From assembly GCA_021907015.1 (NCBI GenBank), contig CP091064.1, positions 4,154,001 to 4,218,000 of the forward strand: a stretch of DNA of 64,000 nucleotides, in the 5' to 3' direction. This DNA comes from Pectobacterium sp. PL152. GTDB taxonomy: Bacteria > Pseudomonadota > Gammaproteobacteria > Enterobacterales > Enterobacteriaceae. A program made the translations under genes and the position numbers. Positions 51,690-64,000 of the stretch are shown piece after piece. The number at the start of each line of letters is the position of its first letter. The first letter of the stretch is position 1. The notes beneath the pieces are model-generated. The model saw only the letters and a program-made list of their open reading frames with translations, was not told the origin of the DNA and did not search any database.

Positions 51690-51845
51690 ATGCAATCGCT
51701 TGGTGAACCGTTGCTGCCTGGCTCACCGGCGCGTTCTTCTCGATTCGTGATTTATGCTACCACTTTCGAACTGCTGGATATCGGCGTTCAGTTGTCGTAT
51801 GGAGAAAACGTTATCGAACATGGTGACACTACGGAACATATATGA
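51690..51845 (+). CDS. possible truncated protein (51 aa)
   Basis: An open frame 13 bases after the flavin-reductase-like gene, with AGAGAGA before the ATG. It encodes MQSLGEPLLPGSPARSSRFV and ends GENVIEHGDTTEHI. It overlaps the end of the convergent minus-strand gene by 17 bases. It looks like the N-terminal part of a larger protein cut off at the island boundary; no family is recognised. Confidence 0.35.
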   Translation: MQSLGEPLLPGSPARSSRFVIYATTFELLDIGVQLSYGENVIEHGDTTEHI

Positions 51846-53250
51846 TTTCGAAGGTCGATGTTAAATCTTTAAGATCTTTCTTTGCCCCATCTTTGTAATG
51901 AATCTGTACATCATAATGGTAGATCAGCTTTTCCTGCGGATTAAGAATAAGCTGCAAGGCTGACATTTTCACTTTGACTGTCTTACTAGGATGATCGCTA
52001 TTCAGTGCTATCGTCTGGTTGCTAATGCTGATTAATATCTGCTCAATGGGTTTCGGACCACTGGGATCGTAGGCGCCGCTGCTGCTGATAAATTCCAGCG
52101 TTTTGACAATTTCCACTGGAGTGGACTGATCGATAAACGGCAGAGGGTTGTTTTTATATTCAATCGGCATTCTGAGTCGTACCGGAATATTGTCAGGGTT
52201 GAATCCCTCCTGTTGAACTTCCAGTTCACCATTGAGCAACAGATGCTGTGATGCAGTAAACAGTGCGTCCCAAATCTTTGCAAATTGTGCTGCTGGCAGC
52301 GTGAACGAATCAATAATGCCGCTTTGCAGGTTGATGATCGCATTGGTCTCTTCGGTTTTTCCCGCTGGTAATGACAACTGTAACTTAAGGCGATGCGCGC
52401 TGGAAAACGGAATCAACTTGCCTTGTGGCTGGGATTGAATAAAGGTTGTTTCGGCATCGCTAATGCGTTGTCTGGTCACCTTTGGCAGCAGGAAATAGTC
52501 AAAGGTCACATTAAACTGGGCCGTTTCTGTCGCTCCTTCTGGTGCAGAAAAAGTGATCGACAACATGGGTTTATCGTTGTCACTGCTGTTACTTGCTAAT
52601 AGGAATGTATCCGGTAAATAATAAAGATATTCTTTACGAATATTATCCTGATAATAGTTATACCAACTTTGATCATATCTTATTGGGGTGAGAATTAATT
52701 CTAACCGCGGTTTCGGTGGTGCAATGCCACGATAGATATAAGGATAATAATTTTCCGCAAAATAAAATATCTTAGGATCGGTAATGGTATTCAGCATACC
52801 TGTATCGGATTTAATGGCGATGACCAGCGTGGTTTGCGCATCGTAGTTAGATAAGGCTCTTAGTAACGCATCTCGCTGCTCAAGTCGGGTGAGTTTTAGT
52901 TGAGCCTGATATTGTTTTCCGGCTTTCCGCGCTACGTCCTGAAATATCATCTCATTGAATTTTCCAAACTGATTAAAATTGAGGACTACATAAGGCATTT
53001 CTGGGACGTTTTTATTGAGATCGAAACTCAAAACCATCGTCCAACTTATGCCATCAGTTATGGTTTCAATTTGATAGCGTATTTCGCCAGAGACATTCTC
53101 GGTACTGACCTGCGCCGTCAATTCGTCGGGCAACGATGCCAGAGAGGTCCGCAGTTTTCGGGTCAGGTTAACGTTTTCACTAAACTGTTGCTGCGCATTT
53201 TCCAGAATGATTTTGTTTAACGTAACCAGGTCATTGAGAAATATGTTCAT
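51829..53250 (-). CDS. uncharacterised beta-rich protein, paralogue G of the tandem array
   Basis: Intact frame of 473 residues (479 if an upstream in-frame ATG at 53268 is used). No signal peptide or membrane helix is visible. The centre holds the signature shared with its neighbours: EYLYYLPDTFLLAS, then KPMLSITFSAPEG, then ETAQFNVTFDYFL. The C-terminal part (LIYHYDVQIHYKDGAKKDL) resembles the strand-rich modules ending paralogues D and E. It overlaps the end of gene F. The function is unknown; the pattern resembles long uncharacterised multi-module proteins I recall from actinobacteria and myxobacteria. Confidence 0.7.
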   Translation of the reverse strand: MNIFLNDLVTLNKIILENAQQQFSENVNLTRKLRTSLASLPDELTAQVSTENVSGEIRYQIETITDGISWTMVLSFDLNKNVPEMPYVVLNFNQFGKFNEMIFQDVARKAGKQYQAQLKLTRLEQRDALLRALSNYDAQTTLVIAIKSDTGMLNTITDPKIFYFAENYYPYIYRGIAPPKPRLELILTPIRYDQSWYNYYQDNIRKEYLYYLPDTFLLASNSSDNDKPMLSITFSAPEGATETAQFNVTFDYFLLPKVTRQRISDAETTFIQSQPQGKLIPFSSAHRLKLQLSLPAGKTEETNAIINLQSGIIDSFTLPAAQFAKIWDALFTASQHLLLNGELEVQQEGFNPDNIPVRLRMPIEYKNNPLPFIDQSTPVEIVKTLEFISSSGAYDPSGPKPIEQILISISNQTIALNSDHPSKTVKVKMSALQLILNPQEKLIYHYDVQIHYKDGAKKDLKDLTSTFEIIYVP

Positions 53251-55172
53251 GGGTGTCCTTTGTGTCATAGAGTGCAGAGCAACGCCTCAGCGTTGATAGA
53301 TAGGATGAGGTCCACAGATACTGTCCATCATGACGACGATAAAGCGGTATTTCCCTTGTATCATTAGCGAACTGCCATTTTTTAACGGTGTAATTATGTC
53401 CGATAGCGTATCGATACCGATATTTTTGGCATATTCAAGCGTGGCCAACCATTCTGCGGGATGGGCATAATAAGGGGTTAATTGGGTTACTCTTTGGTAT
53501 TCGCCTTTACTCCAAACTACGGCTTTTTCAACATGGTACTAATCCGATAATAAGCCGATAAATCTACGCATTGCTCACCATAAAAACGATACAATAAAAT
53601 TAATACATTGGTATTAACACAACAGTCGATCTGGGTAATCTCATTATTTTGCTTCATCCAGGTGTGGAAGGTTTGGCATTCAGCCCATTGATGCTGTGGT
53701 GCGGTTAGTCGGGCATCAACCTTCTGTAGCTGGTAGCCATTCATCTCAATCAGCGTCTGGCGAACAGCATCAGATGAAATACGCTCAAACTTATACAGCA
53801 TTTCGGTAATGATCGCCGTGTCATCAATATCGGCGTCAATAATCTGGTTTTTCATCCACGGAGGATGAGCGTGACGGGGCCAGAAGCTGAAATGGCCAGG
53901 GCGTGTTTCACAAGTGGCGAGAAAATCCAGTGCGCGATCGATATAGGGGCAGTTTGCTTATTGTAGTCGAGCGTCCTTAATACCTGTGCAGTGACAAAGG
54001 CATTGGCATCCTGATGCCACTGACCATCGGGCGTCCTGACACTGGACAGAAATGCCCCGTTTTCTGACTGCTGTTGCTGGAGAATCGTATCCAGAGCCAT
54101 ATCGTATGGCGGTGGCTGGCTATGATCGAGCAGTGGGACGTCACACCAGCGATCGTTCTGTGGGCTGAAGGTACAACTGATACCACACGTTGCCTGCGCA
54201 TCGACTGTAAAGCCGATGACATTAAACTGAAGTGGCACGTTCTCTTTAATTAGCGTTTGTAGCAGTGGCATGGGGTGTACCACGTGCTGCAATAGTTCAC
54301 TCATTTTCTGAGCGGCCTGAGTATTACCACCTAAAAGCGCGGTGCCATCGTAAACAGGTTAAAACTTTCCAACTGGCGTTGGGGACTATAAACCAGGCTA
54401 AAACCATAGGTGGTGGCAGGAAACTCACCTGGATTAGGTCTGTTGGCTAATACCTGATTGAGCAGCGCCGCCAACGGAGGAAACTTACTTTCAGAGCCAA
54501 ATAACCGCATAACGTTGGCTATGTCCGCCAACGTTATTTCCGCGCTGTGCCACTGATAGTAATATTCGGTTGATGTATCAGGCCGATCCGGGTAATAGCC
54601 AATCATCAGGAGCGATAGCCCGGCTGCGGTTAGCTGATGCAGAGGATAGTAGCTATTGGCGTGGTTTAGCGCGGAGGTATACAGAGCGATTAAAGCCTGA
54701 TTGTTCGGAGGTATTTCGGAATAGACCTTGGTTTTAACCTTGCCAGCGGCATATTTCCGACCCAACCATGAACCAAATTTTAGCGCTTGGGAGGCGTACC
54801 CAGCCCCTGTATATGGGCTATGTGTGCGAAACAGGATGCAACAGATGCTGACGAGTTTGATGAGGTGTACGGGGCATTTTCCGTACTGAAGGTCCCAATA
54901 TCACGGGCCTGGGTGGATAAAGGGAGAAAAGTATCGAACGTGCAGGCTACAGCCCGCGGTTTTATGCTAGATGTCGTAAACTCCAGTGGACAACCATTAT
55001 AGGCCAATAAACTCGTATTAAATGCCGCAGAAAGCAGTCCCGATGCCATCCGCTTCTGACTGAAACGGTCGACATCGGGTAGTAGCGTGTCTGCTAAATC
55101 CGGCACGTGATGGCACAAAGTGGTTACCAGGGCGTTCAAGGCCGCTGGTAACACCGCAGCGCGTTCAACCAT
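53231..55172 (-). pseudogene. prenyltransferase-like plus terpene-cyclase-like protein (gene F), frame interrupted
   Basis: Read through several breaks (near 54780, 54330, 53855, 53525 and 53390) this is about 645 residues. The first half has a pattern reminiscent of bacterial indole/DMATS-type prenyltransferases: NTSLLAYNGCPLEFTTSSIK, TEYYYQWHSAEITLADIANV, TTYGFSLVYSPQRQLESFNL and PLQFNVIGFTVDAQATCGIS. The second half looks like an alpha/alpha toroid: ALDTILQQQQSENGAFLSSV, then DADIDDTAIITEML with the DxDDTA motif of class II terpene cyclases, then DCCVNTNVLILLYRFYG. Both assignments are by eye. It could also be two adjacent genes, since an ATG occurs at 53855. It starts 16 bases after gene E and overlaps G. 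Confidence 0.5.
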
Positions 55173-55188
55173 AATTATTGACCGTGGT

Positions 55189-56819
55189 TCATGCCGGAAT
55201 AACAATGCTTGGCGGATTATCCGTACCGTCGACCACCCGGGTATGCCCACCGACCTCAAGATAGGTAATCGTATAATGAACCGTCCAGGGTTTTTCTGTC
55301 AGACAGCGATACTTGAAGGTTTGCACCGCGGTTTTATCGGGGTTAAAAGTGAATTTTTGTTTTTCTTCAATCCTTTGTCATCACAATAGGTGAGTTCAAC
55401 CAGAACCTGATTGTATTTATCCCAAGAAAATGTACGATCGAGGAAAATATCAACTTCATTGAAAGTGAGTAAATTACTCGGATCGAGGCTGATAGCGTTA
55501 GAGGCGGTTTTGAATTTTGACTGATAGCTGCTATTACCTTCCCAGCCGGTGCTGCTTGCTGACTTAAAGATAAAATCGCCTTGAATATCGAATAATTCAT
55601 TCCGGTCTTTGCTTCTGGAAATGTTTTTCTGCCATTCTTTACCGTCCTCAGTAAAGGCATCACCAGTGTAGACGTTATTATTATAACTGGCCTTAAATGC
55701 CGCTGCTTTAATACCCAGTTCTTGAAAACCATCTGGCCCGAAGATTTGAAGTTCGATTTTCTGAAAGAAAGGATCGTTGACGTTCACTTCAATAAAATAG
55801 GGCTTCTCTTTTTGGCCTTTAACGTGTCGGTACCGATAAAGTTTTGTGGCACCGCTGCCTGGGTAATCGCCTTTGATGACGTGTAGTTGAAGGATAAGGT
55901 TTTATGTTCGGTAATTTTACTACTTTTAATTCCAATGATGCGCAGGGAAATAAACCGCCTTTTTCTTCTTCATCTTTACTGCCAATCAATGATTCCAGAA
56001 TAGAAGCACTTGCCGATTTTGCCTGCTCGTTACTTTCTTCATTCGGCTTAATGGTTGCATTGAAAAATATCTTTAACAGCTCTTCTTTGACGAACTGTAA
56101 CGCCCACTCTTTTCTTTTTCCGCCTCGTCACCGGGCATACTTTCGGTCACCTTGATGACGAGCTTTTGATCTTGTTCCAGTTTTTATCACGCTGTCAAAG
56201 CCGAGCCAAAACTGGCTGGTGTTTCGACAGGGATGGGAATGTTAATGCCAAATTTGGCACCGAACTCTTTATATACGCTGTCAAACTCTGCGGTGACATC
56301 CACCTTCAATGCAGGGGTAATACCTGTGTAGGTGAGATTGTAAGCGACGGCCGCTGGTGCCTGTGCCTGATTAAATGCAGCTTCCAGAATAACCGCCTGT
56401 TGTGGCGTTAGTTTGGCACTGAAAATAGCCGTGTTATTACCAAATAGGCTGGGACTTTGTGCGCTGATCAACTGGCCATTGGCATTTTGTGCATCCAGCA
56501 CAAAAAGTTTACCGTGCCATTGTTAAAGGGACGGGGGCTTTACGGGCATTTTGGGTTTGATATTCAGCTTATTCAGATAGTCGGTAAATGCGATATTGAG
56601 TTCACCTTCATCGACGGCGGTATTGACTTCAAAGTTGATGTATCCTCCCTGCTGATTGGCGTCATCTCCGGTATATTTAATTAATGAGAATACGGGTTTC
56701 CCATCGCGCACGGCAATATGAATATTGCCAGGTAAATACCAGAATTGGTTTTCATCTGAGTCATCAGAAAAAAACGTGATGTTTTTAATTGTGGCTGTCT
56801 TTTCTCTCAATAATAACAT
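55189..56819 (-). pseudogene. uncharacterised beta-rich protein, paralogue E, frame interrupted
   Basis: About 543 residues after frame restoration. It starts MLLLREKTATIKNITFFSDD with GAGGAAA before the ATG. Signature blocks are NQFWYLPGNIHIAV, KPVFSLIKYTGDD, QQGGYINFEVNTA, the middle block SLFGNNTAIFSAKLTPQQAV, VTAEFDSVYKEFG, EVNVNDPFFQKIELQIFG, and a terminal module FSWDKYNQVLVELTYCDDKG. Breaks lie near 56520, 56150-56200, 55850-55900 and 55330. No signal peptide. The same blocks in the same order occur in paralogue C. Confidence 0.6.
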
Positions 56820-56869
56820 GATTTTTCCTCATGATTGACTAGTGATATAAATATGATCTTCATCTGTTT

Positions 56870-58646
56870 TTAGTGTTTTTCCTCAATCTCACCATCATTA
56901 TTAATAATGATGATGTCGAGAGTGATAAGTAATAATTTCGGGTCGGGTTGATCTGCACTAAATAATGCATCTTCTGATTGATCTTCGGAAAAATAAAACT
57001 CTTCTTTTAACGATTTCGAGGTGGGTTGGTCATAGCAGTAAGTCACATTGACTAAAACTTGTGTTATTTTTATCCAGTTTAATTTGGGGGATATTATCAG
57101 CGTTCGTTGTTTGTAGAGTCGTGAAAATAGAGTGACATCTTGACTAGTAGGCTGATATAACTTTACTGGTATATGGGGTGTGTTAGCACGAGTGCTATAC
57201 TCTTTGGTTGCTGAAAAAGTATAGTTTTCAGGATCTGGTAGCATAATGCTGTATTCTTCATGCGGATTTTTCTGAGTGATATAGAAGTTTTTCGATGTGC
57301 TGTTTTCTTTGTTTTTAATATGGGTGCAGGTAATGTTAACCAATATTGATGCATACCATGACCAGTTGAATTTTTTTCTGCTGATATAACGAAATTATAA
57401 CGACTATATAGTGATTCAATGTCTAAAAAAGTTCGGTTGAGGATGTGCTCATAATGGCTGAACTGGCAGACATCACACCACCGACCGGACGGTTAAAATA
57501 CAGTGTAAACTGATATTCCACTGGCCATGACGTTTTTTGGTTACGGGATCGGTAATGACAGAAGCGCAGAATGTTTTAGCTGCCATATTATTTCTGGAGA
57601 AAACGAGCGGAGGCTGAGAGCCACCATAAGTAAAATTCAGCGTCACCAATTGAATATTTTCGTCTAACTCAGACGCCAGCAATTGGGCTCTTATCGTGCG
57701 GAAAGAGAAAAAATTATCCTGAAGCTCGTGATAACTTACAACACTGCTGGCGTCATAATGGCTCTGACTGACCAGTGTGGCAAAAAAGTGCTTGAGGATA
57801 GAGAGAGCGCCGTACCACTGTGGTTTCGGTGATTCGGGCACTGAGCGTGCGTTTATCAATATCTTTGACTGAAATGTTTTGTAATTGGAAGCCAAATTCT
57901 GGCGCAGAATCTGTCTTTATTTGACCAAATGCTGGGGTGAAAAATTCGCAAGTCAGAATAGCGCTCAATTCAGTCGTTGCTTTTCCAATATAGTGGTCAG
58001 GATTAGCATTTCTTACCTTGATGGTAACTAGTTTTTACTGATTAAGGTTTCGGAAATATCATCAATATTAAAAGAAAAATCAATGCATTAAAACCAAATG
58101 AGGTTTTAAGGTATTCATAGACCTGATCCCACTGGGCATCAAGTTCAAAGATTGAAGGGGGTAACTGTTGGAGGTAGTCGATTTTATAGCTGACGGCAAT
58201 TGGAGCAGATTCTGGCTGCTGAAGTAGTGCGGCGATTCTCTCAATGTCATTCGCGTCAGTCTGGGAGGCCATAATATAGCAAAACTGATTATTTCCTAGT
58301 GAGGTGTTATTCAGCACTTGTGGCATAGCCTGTGGGATACTGAGCGTTGCGGTGCTGGCAATAATTTGCAGTGGGAGTAGGGTGGCATCCGCCGGAATAT
58401 CAGGATTGTCCAGAGCCGCTGCTTGTGCCGCAGCCAGGCTGCTGGCCAATTGCGTCTGCAGTGAAAGTATTGCGTAGTAATTCGTCGGTTGAGTGCTCGC
58501 GCTACTTCTGAATATTTGATAATGAACTTCGGGAATGGCCTGATTATTCACCAGAATACTGGGTGCCATGGCACAATAATAATAAACCTGACTGCCTGGC
58601 ATCGCATTAATAAAGCCTATAGTTTTTCCGTTATTCTGTTATTCAT
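56870..58646 (-). pseudogene. uncharacterised beta-rich protein, paralogue D, frame interrupted
   Basis: About 590 residues after restoration, from MNNRITEK. Blocks are QVYYYCAMAPSILVNNQ, IPEVHYQIFRSS, NYYAILSLQTQLA, the middle block NTSLGNNQFCYIMASQTDAN, PPSIFELDAQWDQVYEYLK, SVVSYHELQDNFFSFRTIRA, and a terminal module LNWIKITQVLVNVTYCYDQ like that of paralogue E. The frame breaks near 58625, 58070, 58035, 57815, 57510, 57450 and 57365. Composition is A+T rich. No known family is recognised. Confidence 0.55.
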
Positions 58647-58660
58647 AGCGATTGCCCATG

Positions 58661-58725
58661 TTGAATAAAAAGCGGTCAGCCAGGCATCGACCATCAATGC
58701 AATGGTCGATGCCCTGCCTATTCAA
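58661..58725. other. long intergenic hairpin between paralogues C and D
   Basis: GGCATCGACCAT (58683-58694) and ATGGTCGATGCC (58702-58713) form a perfect 12-bp stem with a seven-base loop. Outer arms TTGAATA (58661-58667) and TATTCAA (58719-58725) can pair as well. No T run follows directly, so it is more like an RNA processing or attenuation structure than a terminator. Confidence 0.6.
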
Positions 58726-58806
58726 TAGTATTAACACCGTTCATCGCTGAGATTCAGGGTCGTGTGCTCCTGAGTCAGCAAGATGACGGAGAAGCCTATT
58801 AGGCCA

Positions 58807-60947
58807 TTAACAGTTCACTACCACTGCGAACGATGAACCGCTTACCTTACCTTCAATTGGTTTAGGATCACGCTCGTCATTGTAAATAACAGTGCCGCTG
58901 TAGGTAATTTCAGGAATATCGTCTGTGCCATCGGGTAAAAAACCGAAGGTGAGGTTGCGGCGAGTCGTTTTCTTCTAAATCTTTCTCTTCCAGATTAATC
59001 GATTGAGTCTGTTTAAACTTGTAGGTCTTATAGTTCACCGTCATGTCGAAGGTGATAATTAATACATCTTTCTTTGACGCGATGAAAAATATGGAATAGC
59101 TTGTTTTCCTCGGCAGGGCATTCATGATTTGAATTTGATTCGCGCGAGTGGAACCATATCCAGGCAACTGCGGCGAAGGCTCAATACCAGGTTCGATGTA
59201 AGTAAATCTACCGCCATCCCGGGTATAATAATCAGTGGTGAAATAAATGGGGTTTTCTGGTTTCATGCCTACGGGATAAATAAAGGTTTTGGCGGTGTGG
59301 AAACATTCAATAATTGGACGTCACTTTTTAACTCTATGTTATGCGCGGGATCGGAATATTGCGCTTTTAATAATACCTGGCTGAATGTTTTCCAGGCTTG
59401 TTCATCAAGTAATGAGTCAACTTGCGCGTAGACAATACCGCATTGCGCCATATTGATATATTGAACGAGACTATCAGTTACGTCTATTTTACCTGAGTGA
59501 TAGGGTTTTGAATGCAACCGGAAAAATTCACCGTATAGGAGTAACTATAGGTGCGTCCCAGTTTTTATCAATATACCATTTCTCGGTTTTTGCGGAGCGC
59601 TATTTTTGTTGTCGAAACGCAACGTACTGACATGGTTATCGTCATATTTTGCGATGACAATAATGTTTTCAATGTTATATTTAGCTAGGTCCTGACTGAC
59701 ATAGAATTCAGGTTGAATAAATTGAAAGAAGGGATCGTCAAGATCGTATTCTTTGAAATAGTCATCAACCTTCCCAGCACCGACAATAGACAGAATGGAT
59801 GGTAACTGAGCCTGTGGCGCGATGGAAAAAGGAACAACGCGATTCTCTTCATAGACGCGAGTGAAACTCTGCGTATTCTTCAGACTTTCTTTAAATTTAT
59901 CAAAACTCCCAGCATCATTCAGCAAGTCCAGACTCATATCTAACCCAGTTTGGCTAGACAGGATTTGTTGAAGCTGCGCTTGTCCCCAGTCCTCGAAGGT
60001 CTTTATCCAGGCATTATATTGTTCGTCTTTCATGCCCATTTCTTGCGGACTGAGGCCGGGAATAACGGAGACCTTGGCGGCACCTTTCTCGGAAAATTCA
60101 CGGGTGATTTCTTTTTCATCCGCAGACCATGTATGGCGAGTAATGGTTTGAGCCACCGTTTTCATTTTCTCACTGTCATAGGTGACAATGACTTTTACCG
60201 CTGGCAGTGAGGCATCCAGTGTGAAATTATAGCGAATCCCGACACTGGCATTACTCGGCGTGCCTTTTAATACGTTCTCAAACAGGGTTGCCCCCAACCC
60301 TGTCAGTGACAGGCTAAATACGGTATCGTTATTGCCCAAGCCTGAAGGGCTCAGTGGGGTGGGCTGTTGGCTGTAAATACTTTATTCTCGTTGATGATCA
60401 ACGAGGCCTGAGCAGAGGTATAGCGGGGCTGGCGCAGTTCTATTTTATTCTCATCGGGCATCAGCCGTCCTAGGAATTGCTCTCCATCCCCTTTAGGATC
60501 ATAGGCGACAACATATTCTTTCGCTTGTTCTTCGGTTAATCCTGTATTTTTGAATGCTTTTTCTCTGGCCTCCTGATTGGCTTTATTGGTTGATCAGCAG
60601 TAAGCTTGTTTTCAGCCTGAACATATTTAACAATAAGTCTTGATTTTGCCGCTAGCTGTGGTGATATTCCCTTGTAAAGCTGTGTTTTTATTTTATCCCC
60701 TTCGCTTTGCGTAGGTACTGGGAGTTTTACAGTAAACTGTGCATATCCACCTTGTTGCTCTTCTTTACGGTATTTATAGAACAAGAAATCAGGTTTGCTT
60801 TCCTGACCAGAAAAATTGGAATTTCAGGGACGACATAAAAATATTTTTATTTTCGCTATCGCCATAGCAGGTGTAGGTATATTCTTTGATGCCTAAGTGC
60901 TCGGTGGTATCTATTTTAAGCGAATACTGGATGGCTGTGGTTAACAT
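58807..60947 (-). pseudogene. uncharacterised beta-rich protein, paralogue C (longest member), frame interrupted
   Basis: About 715 residues after restoration. It starts MLTTAIQYSLKIDTTEHLGI with AGAGGAA before the ATG. Blocks are KNIFYVVPEIPIF, KPDFLFYKYRKEE, QQGGYAQFTVKLP, LGNNDTVFSLSLTGLGATLF, LPAVKVIVTYDSEK, a central helical-looking part (WSADEKEITREFSEKGAAKV; WIKTFEDWGQAQLQQILSSQ), YDLDDPFFQFIQPEFYVSQD, and several terminal strand modules ending IEGKVSGSSFAVVVNC. Breaks lie near 60850, 60800, 60600, 60370, 59545, 59270 and 58970. No signal peptide. It has the most complete set of blocks and is the best query for a homology search. Confidence 0.6.
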
Positions 60948-60959
60948 AGTTTATTCCTC

Positions 60960-62408
60960 TTAACTTATGGCTATTTTTTTGTATTGAAGCTCAATACGGC
61001 TTAAGGTCGACTGCTGTACACCTGAATCGTAATTTCTGCTTATAAATGACGACGTTTTTCCCTGCCAGTGATATTCAATACGACCATTCAAGGTATTCGA
61101 CCGGGTATTGAGTAACCAAGTGGTTTGCCATTGTTGATCGGAAAATGAAAAACTAAAGGTAGCGCGCTTTGCCTGACCATCAGGGTAATAAGTGGCGCTA
61201 CCTGAAATTGTTTTAAAATCGGGTTGTAAGTGGCGGGCATCGAAAGTCACATCATGAAATCCGATATCCTGAATGCTTAGGTTAATGTCTGCTTGCCATT
61301 GGCGTGTGATATCAATGAATGAATAATCGGAAAAGGTGACTTTGATGGTTATTTCATTAACGTGACCATCGGCCGTGATGGTAAGAGGAGGAAAATTTGG
61401 CCATTGCATTGGCACTTTTTATCTGCCCATGCCAGTTCAATTGACATAATCGCAAACTTACCCGGATTGAAATCCAGGCTGACTTTGCACGTCTGCTGGT
61501 TTCCCGGATCGTCAGGTTGTTTACGTTGAGGTTCAGGCAACGGTGAAGGATCATAGGAAATCAGTTTATTGGCGATAAAACCGCTGAATAGTGACGCGAT
61601 ATCCTGTTCGCCGATCAGCTCATATGATTGGGGCAGGCTGCTTTCGTAAGAGAAATCATAGTCAATTTTGGTGGGTATCTCATCAATATGTGAGATGTTG
61701 CTGAGTGTATTACTGAGGACGCTGGCAGCGAGATCGACCAGATTTTTTCTTACGTTTTCTTTGGTCTGTGGCGATGGCGTATTTTTAAACGCCTCGTCCA
61801 GCATGATGACGCCTGCGTCAATTTGTTTGTCGAGCAATTGCGCAATAGCTTCCGGCGTTCGGGTTTTGGTATTAAAGGCCAGTATCAGAAATTGCCGCCA
61901 GTCACCATTGAGACGGGCGTTAACCTCGGAGCTTACTGTGAACTGCGTGTGGGTGGTAAGAAAATCCGCTTTGTGTCTCCCTGTATGGCCTCGGTTAACG
62001 CTACCCCTTCTGCATGGGTGATAGGCATGGAGTTTTTTTCAAACTCAACCAGGTAGGGTGAGTCATCCAGCGTCTCATGAAAGCGCAAGAAGAGGGTGGT
62101 CTTCGCATCACACTGCTCAAGAGTGATGTTACTGCCTGAGTGGGTGATATGCGTTTGGATATATTGTCGAATGGCCTGGGTATCGAGGGGGACTACCGGC
62201 GTAATCAGGGTAACGAGGCCACCTGCAGGAGTGGTGGTGAGGTGAAAGCCACTGGTTTTATTTCCCCGATCGTCATGAACGATCTCAGGCGTGAAGCAGC
62301 CATAGGTATAGTCACCGATAGCACGACGTTGATCGTGAAAGACGAAAGCTCGATCAAGCAAAAAAAGGACGTCAGATCTTTTTCTGGATTTAGTGTTTCA
62401 GTCTTCAT
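60960..62408 (-). pseudogene. uncharacterised beta-rich protein, paralogue B, frame interrupted
   Basis: About 483 residues after restoration, starting MKTETLNPEKDLTSFF. Blocks are more diverged: DYTYGCFTPEIVHDD, KTSGFHLTTTPAGG, GGLVTLITPVVPLDTQ, MPITHAEGVALTEAIQG, then a helical part (LLDKQIDAGVIMLDEAFKNT) and strand modules (TFSFSFSDQQWQTTWLLNTR; EYHWQGKTSSFISRNYDSG) ending QYKKIAIS. Breaks lie near 62355, 61950 and 61415. Its ATG overlaps the end of gene A (62398-62408). It ends 13 bases before paralogue C, which supports an operon. Confidence 0.58.
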
Positions 62409-64000
62409 TTTCAGCCTCAAGCATAATGGTTTGATTGCCTGTCACATAGTCCGACCATTGGCCGTTACCGATTTTGTAGCGAAACCCTGCGGCGTAAATT
62501 GATGTGACATTCCATTGATATTCATAGCAATTATTCTGGGGTGTAAACGTATGATCCTGCGTTTGGGTTTCTCCCTGAGCCTGAAAACTCAGCGTGGCAT
62601 AGCGGATTCCAGCAGCAAACTGTGTAGTGATGGTGGCGTGTTGTGCGCCGAACTGGGGAAGCTATAAGCACCGAGGGTGGCTGACTGGATGATTGGCATA
62701 TCGAGCACCACTGAGGCGGTGCTATCGTTATCCCAGGCGGTCACTTTGGCATAGGCATCACGTCCCTGTTATCGGATAACTAAAACAGGGTGAAGCCAGC
62801 GTGAGTTCAAACGTTTCTGGCAGATTAGCGGAGTAGTAGTTTCCCCAATCATACTGTGTTGTGCGAAGGTTGGGTCGATAGTGATGGTCAGGAACTGACA
62901 AGGAAAACTGGAATAGTCCAGCGTCAGCATTTTGTTATTGCTGGTTCGTAACTCAGTGACGAGAGAGAGATACCCTTTGTCGGTCGGATAGCTAACGCGA
63001 ATATGGTACTGATATTCACTATCTGGGTTAAACGTATTATTGATAAATGTGAAGGCCAAATAACTCTGATTGGGGGTTAATCGCTGGGTTAGCCGCTGTT
63101 CGGAAGGATAAAGCTCACCCGGTGGTAAAATGATTTGTATATCAATAAACGACCCATTTTTCAGACCCTGTGGGAAAGCGTAAAGAAGGTTAATCTTTAG
63201 GGTTCCGTCAGGCAGTGAAGGCGCGGTAGTTTGGTGGATAATCTGCTCAGGAGCCTCTTTGGCAACTTGCTGTGCAGCGGCAAACGGATCTAACAAAAGC
63301 AGATGGGGCGCCGTGTTAGCTCAACACGTTTTAAATCAACCATCAGGCGACGTGGCTCCTGTGGGAGCAGCAGACAAATATAGGTCATGTTGGTGTCGGC
63401 GTTACCGATATAGGGCGATCCCAACGTGTTGAACAGGCGATCGAGCAAAGCCTGAGCGAATAACAGCGTTTCTGCCGGGTCTGTCGCGGGGAATGCGGGT
63501 GAGATCGCTAACGGTAGCTGGAGCAGGTTTTCGTACACGTACTGGGTAAGCTGCACATAAGGAAATGCTACCCTGCTGTCGGATACGGGTTTGGCGTCTT
63601 TAACCGTTGCCGCCAGTTTGGCAATCAGCTGGCCGGGATCGCATTCCAGCGTATAATTCAGCCGTGGAGATACGCCCTCGACAAAGCCATCGAGACGGGC
63701 ATTAAAGCCAATAATATTATCCAGCAACGTTTTTCATTAGTTGCGTGGTATCTGCATCGAGTGAGATCAGAAATTGAATCGACAGTGCTGAATACCAATT
63801 TGATCGTAATTCTGATGGGTTAATGCCGAGTTGTGACCCGATGGCGAGTGGAAACCAAGTTTATAGGGGATAATCGGTAAGCCTTGGAGCGCTTTCCTGG
63901 ATGTTGGCGATTGAATACTTCAAGCGTTTCACTGCTGGCAAATTGTAGTTCGGTGGTAAAATTAAGGTCACCGTAGATAATGTTGCTGCTTTGGCTGAGG
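62398..64000 (-). pseudogene. uncharacterised beta-rich protein, gene A (5' end outside the window), frame interrupted
   Basis: Only the C-terminal 530 or so residues are in the window. Text includes NIIYGDLNFTTELQFASSET, NIIGFNARLDGFVEGVSPRL, YIGNADTNMTYICLLLPQEP, LPDGTLKINLLYAFPQGLKN, SEYQYHIRVSYPTDKGYLSL, and a terminal module NCYEYQWNVTSIYAAGFRYK ending MLEAENED. Strand-rich modules with aromatic Y-x-Y patterns resemble the ends of paralogues C to E. Frame breaks lie near 63885, 63790, 63725, 63295, 62770 and 62655. It is the upstream-most visible gene of the array. Confidence 0.5.

What the first reader, a model, noticed from the sequence alone, without database searches (positions are those of the whole stretch)
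51829..64000. Tandem array of at least five divergent beta-rich paralogues with no recognised function
Genes B, C, D, E and G share an ordered signature. A strand block comes first (C: FYVVPEIPIF; E: FWYLPGNIHI; D: VYYYCAMAPSIL; B: YTYGCFTPEIV; G: YLYYLPDTFLL). Next is a second block (KPDFLFYKYR; KPVFSLIKYT; IPEVHYQIFR; TSGFHLTTTP; KPMLSITFSA), then a GGY-type strand (GGYAQFTV; GGYINFEV; NYYAILSL; GGLVTLIT; TAQFNVTF). C, D and E also share a GNN block about 100 residues on, and C and E share D(L/V)xDPFFQ. Genes overlap or are closely spaced on one strand, are A+T rich, and have no signal peptides. Several different copies in one operon suggest a multi-subunit assembly or a diversified effector/toxin set. 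I know only uncharacterised proteins with this pattern.
Basis: partly seen in the sequence, partly recalled or inferred. Interest (0 to 1): 0.85.

Follow-up and report, generated by a model that had tools for sequence, protein, structure and literature searches.

The report
Protein-array operon with prenylation-type enzymes
A rare bacterial gene cluster encodes a set of related, unstudied beta-rich proteins next to two genes that resemble terpene-chemistry enzymes, and the same set recurs in distant bacteria, so it is probably a new kind of multi-part system whose purpose is still unknown.

Summary
The array is real and larger than reported. C, D, E and G belong to one beta-rich protein family without an accepted Pfam, NCBIfam or PDB match; B and the frames upstream of it could not be linked. 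In the window and in Enterobacter EA-1 the genes are cut by frameshifts, yet synonymous change far exceeds replacement change and a lacZ-like gene nearby is broken too, so assembly error is at least as likely as decay. Intact arrays in G1051 and G1233 run G-A-B-C-D-E-PT-TC. Beta + PT + TC occur together at 8 loci, including Azospirillum and Calothrix plasmids. A second branch has exported beta-proteins without the enzymes. Toxin-type genes (MakA/MakB/HBL-like) were recognised beside one copy only. Best reading: a heteromeric assembly with its own prenylation and cyclisation chemistry. The module and the PT relationship are shown by sequence; assembly, chemistry and purpose are inferred. Neither structure model was usable.

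The parts
51829..53268 (-). Gene G: intact ORF, 479 aa, G-type member of the array, distant to the C/D/E types
   Evidence: G-type HMM E 2.8e-18; family HMM 0.012; G-type to E-type profile P 8e-4, marginal
53234..54358 (-). TC: DxDDT protein resembling class II terpene cyclases by motif, broken over four frames
   Evidence: TC HMM 5.1e-25, 1.6e-8, 1.5e-8; last frame 53234-53434 only 0.014; motif DIDDT at the invariant position
54334..55298 (-). PT: distant relative of DMATS/PT-barrel prenyltransferases, broken over two frames
   Evidence: PT HMM: frame 54334-54900 E 9e-12; frame 54783-55298 only 0.032; family profile to PDB DMATS enzymes E 3.7e-6
55192..56828 (-). Gene E: beta-rich paralogue with N-domain, GNN block, DPFFQ; broken, one in-frame TAA near 56523
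   Evidence: Family HMM 7.2e-18, 5.8e-16, 3.1e-6; closest type among C, D and E not resolved
56873..58638 (-). Gene D: beta-rich paralogue, broken
   Evidence: Family HMM 2.3e-6 and 0.002; D-type HMM 1.4e-7 and 4e-4
58910..60823 (-). Gene C: beta-rich paralogue, broken; C-terminal frames 58910-59517 assigned by position only
   Evidence: Family HMM 3.2e-22; C-type HMM 4.9e-20; 59545-60339 is 34% identical to EA-1
60960..62361 (-).
   Evidence: No HMM hit of note; hhalign P 0.43
62769..63727 (-). Upstream frames of the same run, unassigned (possibly an A-type gene, by position only), continuing into L003
   Evidence: ORFs; no A-type hit; 62769-63296 to the family P 0.013 among 12 comparisons, not significant

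Best explanation
A conserved, patchily distributed module in which several different but related beta-rich subunits are made together with a soluble DMATS-type prenyltransferase relative (PT) and a DxDDT terpene-cyclase-like protein (TC). Most likely mechanism: PT joins an allylic isoprenoid to an aromatic acceptor, TC protonates and cyclises the isoprenoid chain, and the beta-subunits form a hetero-oligomer that binds, presents or carries the product (or carries it as a covalent modification). In some hosts a co-encoded toxin may be partner or cargo. Shown by sequence: the family, the module, its order, the PT relationship, the invariant motifs. Inferred: catalysis, assembly, cargo.
For: Same set at 8 loci: window, EA-1 (L002), Azospirillum (L005), Calothrix (L006), G959 (L027), G1051 (L045/L048), G1233 (L070), G1235 (L071). 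Order G-A-B-C-D-E-PT-TC in G1051 and G1233; G738 has G-A-B-C-D, one other gene, E, PT; gaps G to PT -4 to 72 nt in G738, G to TC -43 to 64 nt in G1051. PT family profile (7 sequences) hits DMATS structures 6zrx 3.7e-6, 6zry 4.1e-6, 4yzj 2.5e-4 as the top three of 13; Pfam Trp_DMAT 0.0077, below its cut-off. R90, K152xY154 and Y196 are invariant in 7 of 7 and face R, KxY and Y of 6zrx. TC: D-A-D-D-T in 6 of 6 intact copies, DIDDT in the window, DVDDT in EA-1. DxDD is the general-acid motif of class II cyclases (PMC7839719, passages) and a single-domain class II cyclase exists (MstE, PMC9401909, passages). pS 0.69-0.89 against pN 0.32-0.43 in 7 of 7 window/EA-1 fragment pairs that I chose.
Against: TC matches no Pfam, NCBIfam or PDB profile of a class II cyclase. 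PT is below the cut-off of both families it hits; NphB-type structures listed with 5 sequences are no longer listed with 7. G738 has PT but no TC. Exported relatives in G429, G545 and G674 show no TC in the genome (two of the three genomes only 82-85% complete) and no PT at the loci. A PT relative stands without a beta-gene in the 20 kb read around it in G772. Genes in the window are broken. Both AlphaFold models are useless (mean pLDDT 37.4 and 39.5). I noticed no acceptor pathway in the clusters when reading them; no search was made for one.
Confidence: 0.42

Rival explanations
1. A toxin or effector system: the beta-proteins are a delivery or targeting complex for toxins, and PT/TC only modify the toxin or a membrane anchor.
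For: Azospirillum: NCBIfam MakB 2.7e-122 (above cut-off), MakA-like 1e-21 (below cut-off), Pfam HBL 2.2e-12 (above cut-off) in the same run of genes. HINT-like fragment upstream in the window genome (PT-HINT 0.0067, below cut-off).
Against: By eye I saw no toxin-like gene beside the G1051, G1233 and G1235 arrays (the flanks were not scanned against families). The Calothrix and G959 neighbours reach no family cut-off and P0011 and P0014 no PDB match. The HINT hit is sub-threshold and its EA-1 counterpart has none.
Confidence: 0.25
2. The acceptor is protein: PT prenylates aromatic side chains of the beta-proteins and TC cyclises the attached chain, making lipid-anchored subunits.
For: PT and TC directly follow the beta genes; some PT-barrel enzymes act on indoles and peptides (recalled); conserved aromatic FYYLP-type strand.
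Against: The aromatic strand is also conserved in the exported branch that lacks PT and TC at its loci, so it is not evidently the target.
Confidence: 0.15
3. In this genome the locus is a decayed acquisition without function (compatible with any function elsewhere, so this figure is not to be added to the others).
For: Recognised genes other than G broken in the window, and most array genes broken in EA-1; lower GC; not found in 58 other relatives with gene G nor in 294 others of the order with gene C.
Against: pS far above pN; a lacZ-like gene at L003 6.8-9.9 kb and transporter-like genes beside the EA-1 array look broken as well, by eye, which points to assembly error.
Confidence: 0.3

Closest known systems
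DMATS-type / PT-barrel (ABBA) aromatic prenyltransferases (6zrx, 6zry, 4yzj, 3i4x)
   Same: PT family matches them over most of its length (43-289 of 324; E 3.7e-6) and keeps the R, KxY and Y positions
   Different: Below the curated cut-offs of both families it hits; beside a beta-gene in 9 of 10 loci found, a biased count since most were found through the beta-gene; in the one search by PT itself 3 of 4 true hits are beside it
Class II terpene cyclases, especially the single-domain MstE
   Same: Invariant DxDDT, about 280-360 aa, follows a prenyltransferase-like gene
   Different: No sequence-profile relation found
Mak / HBL-NHE alpha-pore-forming toxins
   Same: Neighbours of the module in Azospirillum
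   Different: Not part of the conserved module; in the window only gene G and part of C were scanned with NCBIfam, without a hit
Polymorphic toxin systems with HINT domains
   Same: A HINT-like fragment upstream of the array
   Different: Sub-threshold; no toxin cassette or immunity gene identified, and none was searched for beyond the Pfam scans

Membership tests
PT-barrel / DMATS aromatic prenyltransferase (PT gene) | Significant profile match to solved members over most of the length | tested here: met
   6zrx E 3.7e-6, query 43-289 of 324; with 5 sequences 0.0025
PT-barrel / DMATS aromatic prenyltransferase (PT gene) | Conserved diphosphate-binding Arg and Lys-x-Tyr (role of these residues recalled) | tested here: met
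   R90, K152xY154, Y196 invariant in 7 of 7 intact copies, aligned with R, KxY, Y of 6zrx; window piece has KVY; its Arg is not settled
PT-barrel / DMATS aromatic prenyltransferase (PT gene) | Curated family score reached | tested here: not met
   Trp_DMAT 16.1 of 25 bits; TIGR03429 14.6 of 163.85 bits, hit in 2 of 5 members. Filed as a distant relative, not as a DMATS member
PT-barrel / DMATS aromatic prenyltransferase (PT gene) | Ten-stranded barrel of five alpha-alpha-beta-beta repeats | not tested
   Five strand pairs read by eye only; no model made
Class II terpene cyclase (TC gene) | DxDD general-acid motif | tested here: met
   6 of 6 intact copies, plus window and EA-1 fragments
Class II terpene cyclase (TC gene) | Profile match to known cyclases | tested here: not met
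   (4 sequences). So 'works like', not 'is'
Class II terpene cyclase (TC gene) | Alpha/alpha toroid fold | tested here: inconclusive
   All-helical model of a 146-aa fragment, mean pLDDT 39.5
Anti-phage defence system (PADLOC) | Match to any PADLOC model at E 0.01 | tested here: not met
   0 of 9 proteins: the eight of G1051 and window G
HINT polymorphic toxin | PT-HINT domain above cut-off | tested here: inconclusive
   17.1 of 27.7 bits, E 0.0067, on a fragment; EA-1 counterpart no hit

The most novel reading that the evidence does not exclude
A new class of bacterial machine: six paralogous beta-rich subunits form a defined hetero-oligomer that is lipidated, or loaded with a meroterpenoid, by its own soluble prenyltransferase and a single-domain DxDDT cyclase, and that some hosts have coupled to pore-forming toxins.
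Probability: 0.25. Interest if true: 0.92.

Novelty: categorically new. Interest (0 to 1): 0.74.

Why it matters
No scanned member of the beta-family reached a curated cut-off in Pfam or NCBIfam, a PADLOC hit or a significant PDB-sequence match, yet the family recurs in distant bacteria in multi-gene arrays and with the same two enzyme-like genes. If these work as their motifs suggest, the module links soluble isoprenoid chemistry to a protein assembly, a combination I did not find in print (searches, of which I saw only the listed titles and abstract starts: 10 of 48, 8 of 12, 5 of 5, 8 of 208 and 1 of 1 papers; for names of two relatives). Intact arrays make it directly testable.

Tried and rejected
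Rejected: B as a demonstrated paralogue. Rejected: G797 as a PT carrier (the hit lies in flagellin-like ORFs, recognised by eye). Not supported: EEP-nuclease reading of Calothrix P0011 and cysteine-protease reading of G738 P0015, both mine and by eye. MakC/MakD as the enzymes: PMC11484084 (abstract and passages) describes two proteins similar to each other; not compared by sequence here. Dead ends: phages with P0002, viral contigs with TC and PT, plasmids with G, AlphaFold models (not sent to fold search because of low confidence). PDB profile of the beta family: best E 0.083, antibody light chains. My early by-eye matching of window G to proteins of L014 and L015 was not borne out (hhalign P 0.09); the G-type of G738 and G1051 is the better counterpart.
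Full report
What is in the window. The minus strand from 64000 down to 51829, and about 1.5 kb more of the neighbouring stretch (L003), holds one run of genes. Gene G is intact; C, D, E and the two enzyme-like genes are split among frames. A family HMM built from 16 intact relatives finds C, D and E in order and nothing significant elsewhere in the window. HMMs for each paralogue type (from G1051, G738, G1233, G1235) place G at 2.8e-18, C at 4.9e-20, D at 1.4e-7; E matches C, D and E types alike. B and the frames upstream match nothing convincingly.

Two enzyme-like genes. Between E and G lie homologues of two neighbours of the beta-gene in Calothrix and Azospirillum. The first (PT) is a distant relative of DMATS-type aromatic prenyltransferases. 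With five sequences the PDB's best matches were 6zrx 0.0025, 6zry 0.0028 and 4yzj 0.012, and 10 of 17 listed were named prenyl- or dimethylallyltransferases, five of them near-identical 7fh entries. With seven sequences (two of the additions about 78% identical to the first) 6zrx is 3.7e-6 and 4yzj 2.5e-4; the next hit, a flagellin, is 0.032; 4 of 13 listed are such enzymes and the NphB-type ones have dropped out. The window piece scores 9e-12 against the PT family. The second (TC) has a DxDDT motif invariant in 6 of 6 intact copies; the window's fragment has DIDDT and EA-1's DVDDT. It has no profile match to cyclases, so I call it cyclase-like by motif and context only.

Where else. Beta + PT + TC: the 8 loci named above. 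Beta + PT without TC: G738. Beta without either: L014-L017 (G429, G545, G674, genomes of the window's own class). There 12 of 13 beta-proteins have a strongly hydrophobic N-terminal stretch (peak Kyte-Doolittle 1.86-3.00); the 13th (L015:8697-10646) peaks at 1.32 with the start used, which may be too early. In the other branch 15 of 15 peak at 1.38 or less (a crude test, not a signal-peptide predictor). A beta fragment among transposases lies on a Bradyrhizobium plasmid (L007). PT without beta nearby: G772. Frequencies, centres included: gene G, 1 of 59 relatives, the own genome; gene C, 1 of 295 of the order, own; family profile, 4 of 369 of the class, 3 of 398 of the phylum, 2 of 240 of the class of G959, 1 of 78 of the order of G738, 2 of 2 of the order of G545, 3 of 10 of the family of G1051. 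PT: 5 of 398, of which one is a false hit and one has no beta-gene nearby. TC: 3 of 7 beta-bearing genomes asked. Sets overlap, and the own genome is counted.

Array logic. In G1051 and G1233 the order is G-A-B-C-D-E-PT-TC; G738 has G-A-B-C-D, one unassigned gene, E, PT. In the window and in EA-1, G lies behind TC. Profile-profile P values between types: C-D 5e-55, D-E 9e-63, C-E 2e-31, B-D 3e-6, B-C 7e-5, A-E 2e-6, A-D 0.007, G-E 8e-4, G-C 0.015; the other six of the 15 pairs are 0.06 or worse. So A and B are tied in through D and E, and G only marginally. A control with reversed profiles, made for the earlier groupings, gave 0.2-0.8. Constant types in constant order argue for distinct subunits. 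G1235, with a single C/E hybrid, shows that the number is not fixed.

Broken genes. EA-1's array is broken too, as by eye are transporter-like genes beside it and a lacZ-like gene beside the window's array. Between window and EA-1, synonymous change is near or at saturation while protein identity is 41-51% (7 of 7 chosen pairs; a ratio could be computed for two, 0.24 and 0.25), so both lineages kept these genes as proteins for most of their divergence. Recent decay and assembly error both remain possible.

How it may work. A soluble DMATS-type enzyme and a DxDDT protein behind a set of closely spaced subunit genes suggest prenylation followed by cyclisation, the logic of MstE-type meroterpenoids (PMC9401909, passages). 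I noticed no acceptor pathway, so the acceptor may come from host metabolism or be the proteins themselves. Toxin neighbours in Azospirillum suggest that at least one lineage pairs the module with a pore-former, but by eye three arrays have none, so toxicity is probably not the core.

Known or not. Pfam, NCBIfam, PADLOC and PDB searches gave no accepted family for the beta-proteins scanned. Among the papers listed, no title or abstract start describes this module; most of the longer hit lists were not seen. One search searched accession and locus names of the Azospirillum and Calothrix relatives; its four papers matched only the plasmid-wide prefix (listing seen, not read). PMC3227686 was seen as listing and passages.

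Noticed in passing
L003:326-1532 (- strand), just beyond the window's end: ORFs directly upstream of the array include a HINT-like fragment (PT-HINT E 0.0067, below cut-off); EA-1 has a similar ORF by eye.
   Followed up: partly
L003:6821-9949 (- strand): lacZ-like gene (named by eye) split among four frames: suggests indel errors in this assembly.
   Followed up: no
L071:2372-4675 (G1235): Hybrid with C-type and E-type matches, as if C, D and E had recombined into one gene.
   Followed up: partly
L058:8245-9225 (G772): Relative of the PT family without a beta-gene in 20 kb, downstream of ORFs that by eye look like a CoA ligase and an enoyl-CoA hydratase.
   Followed up: partly
L025:6636-7679 (G738): NAL1-type protein (Pfam Nal1_C 2e-57) in the same run as the array; also an unassigned 536-aa gene between D and E.
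   Followed up: partly
   Followed up: partly
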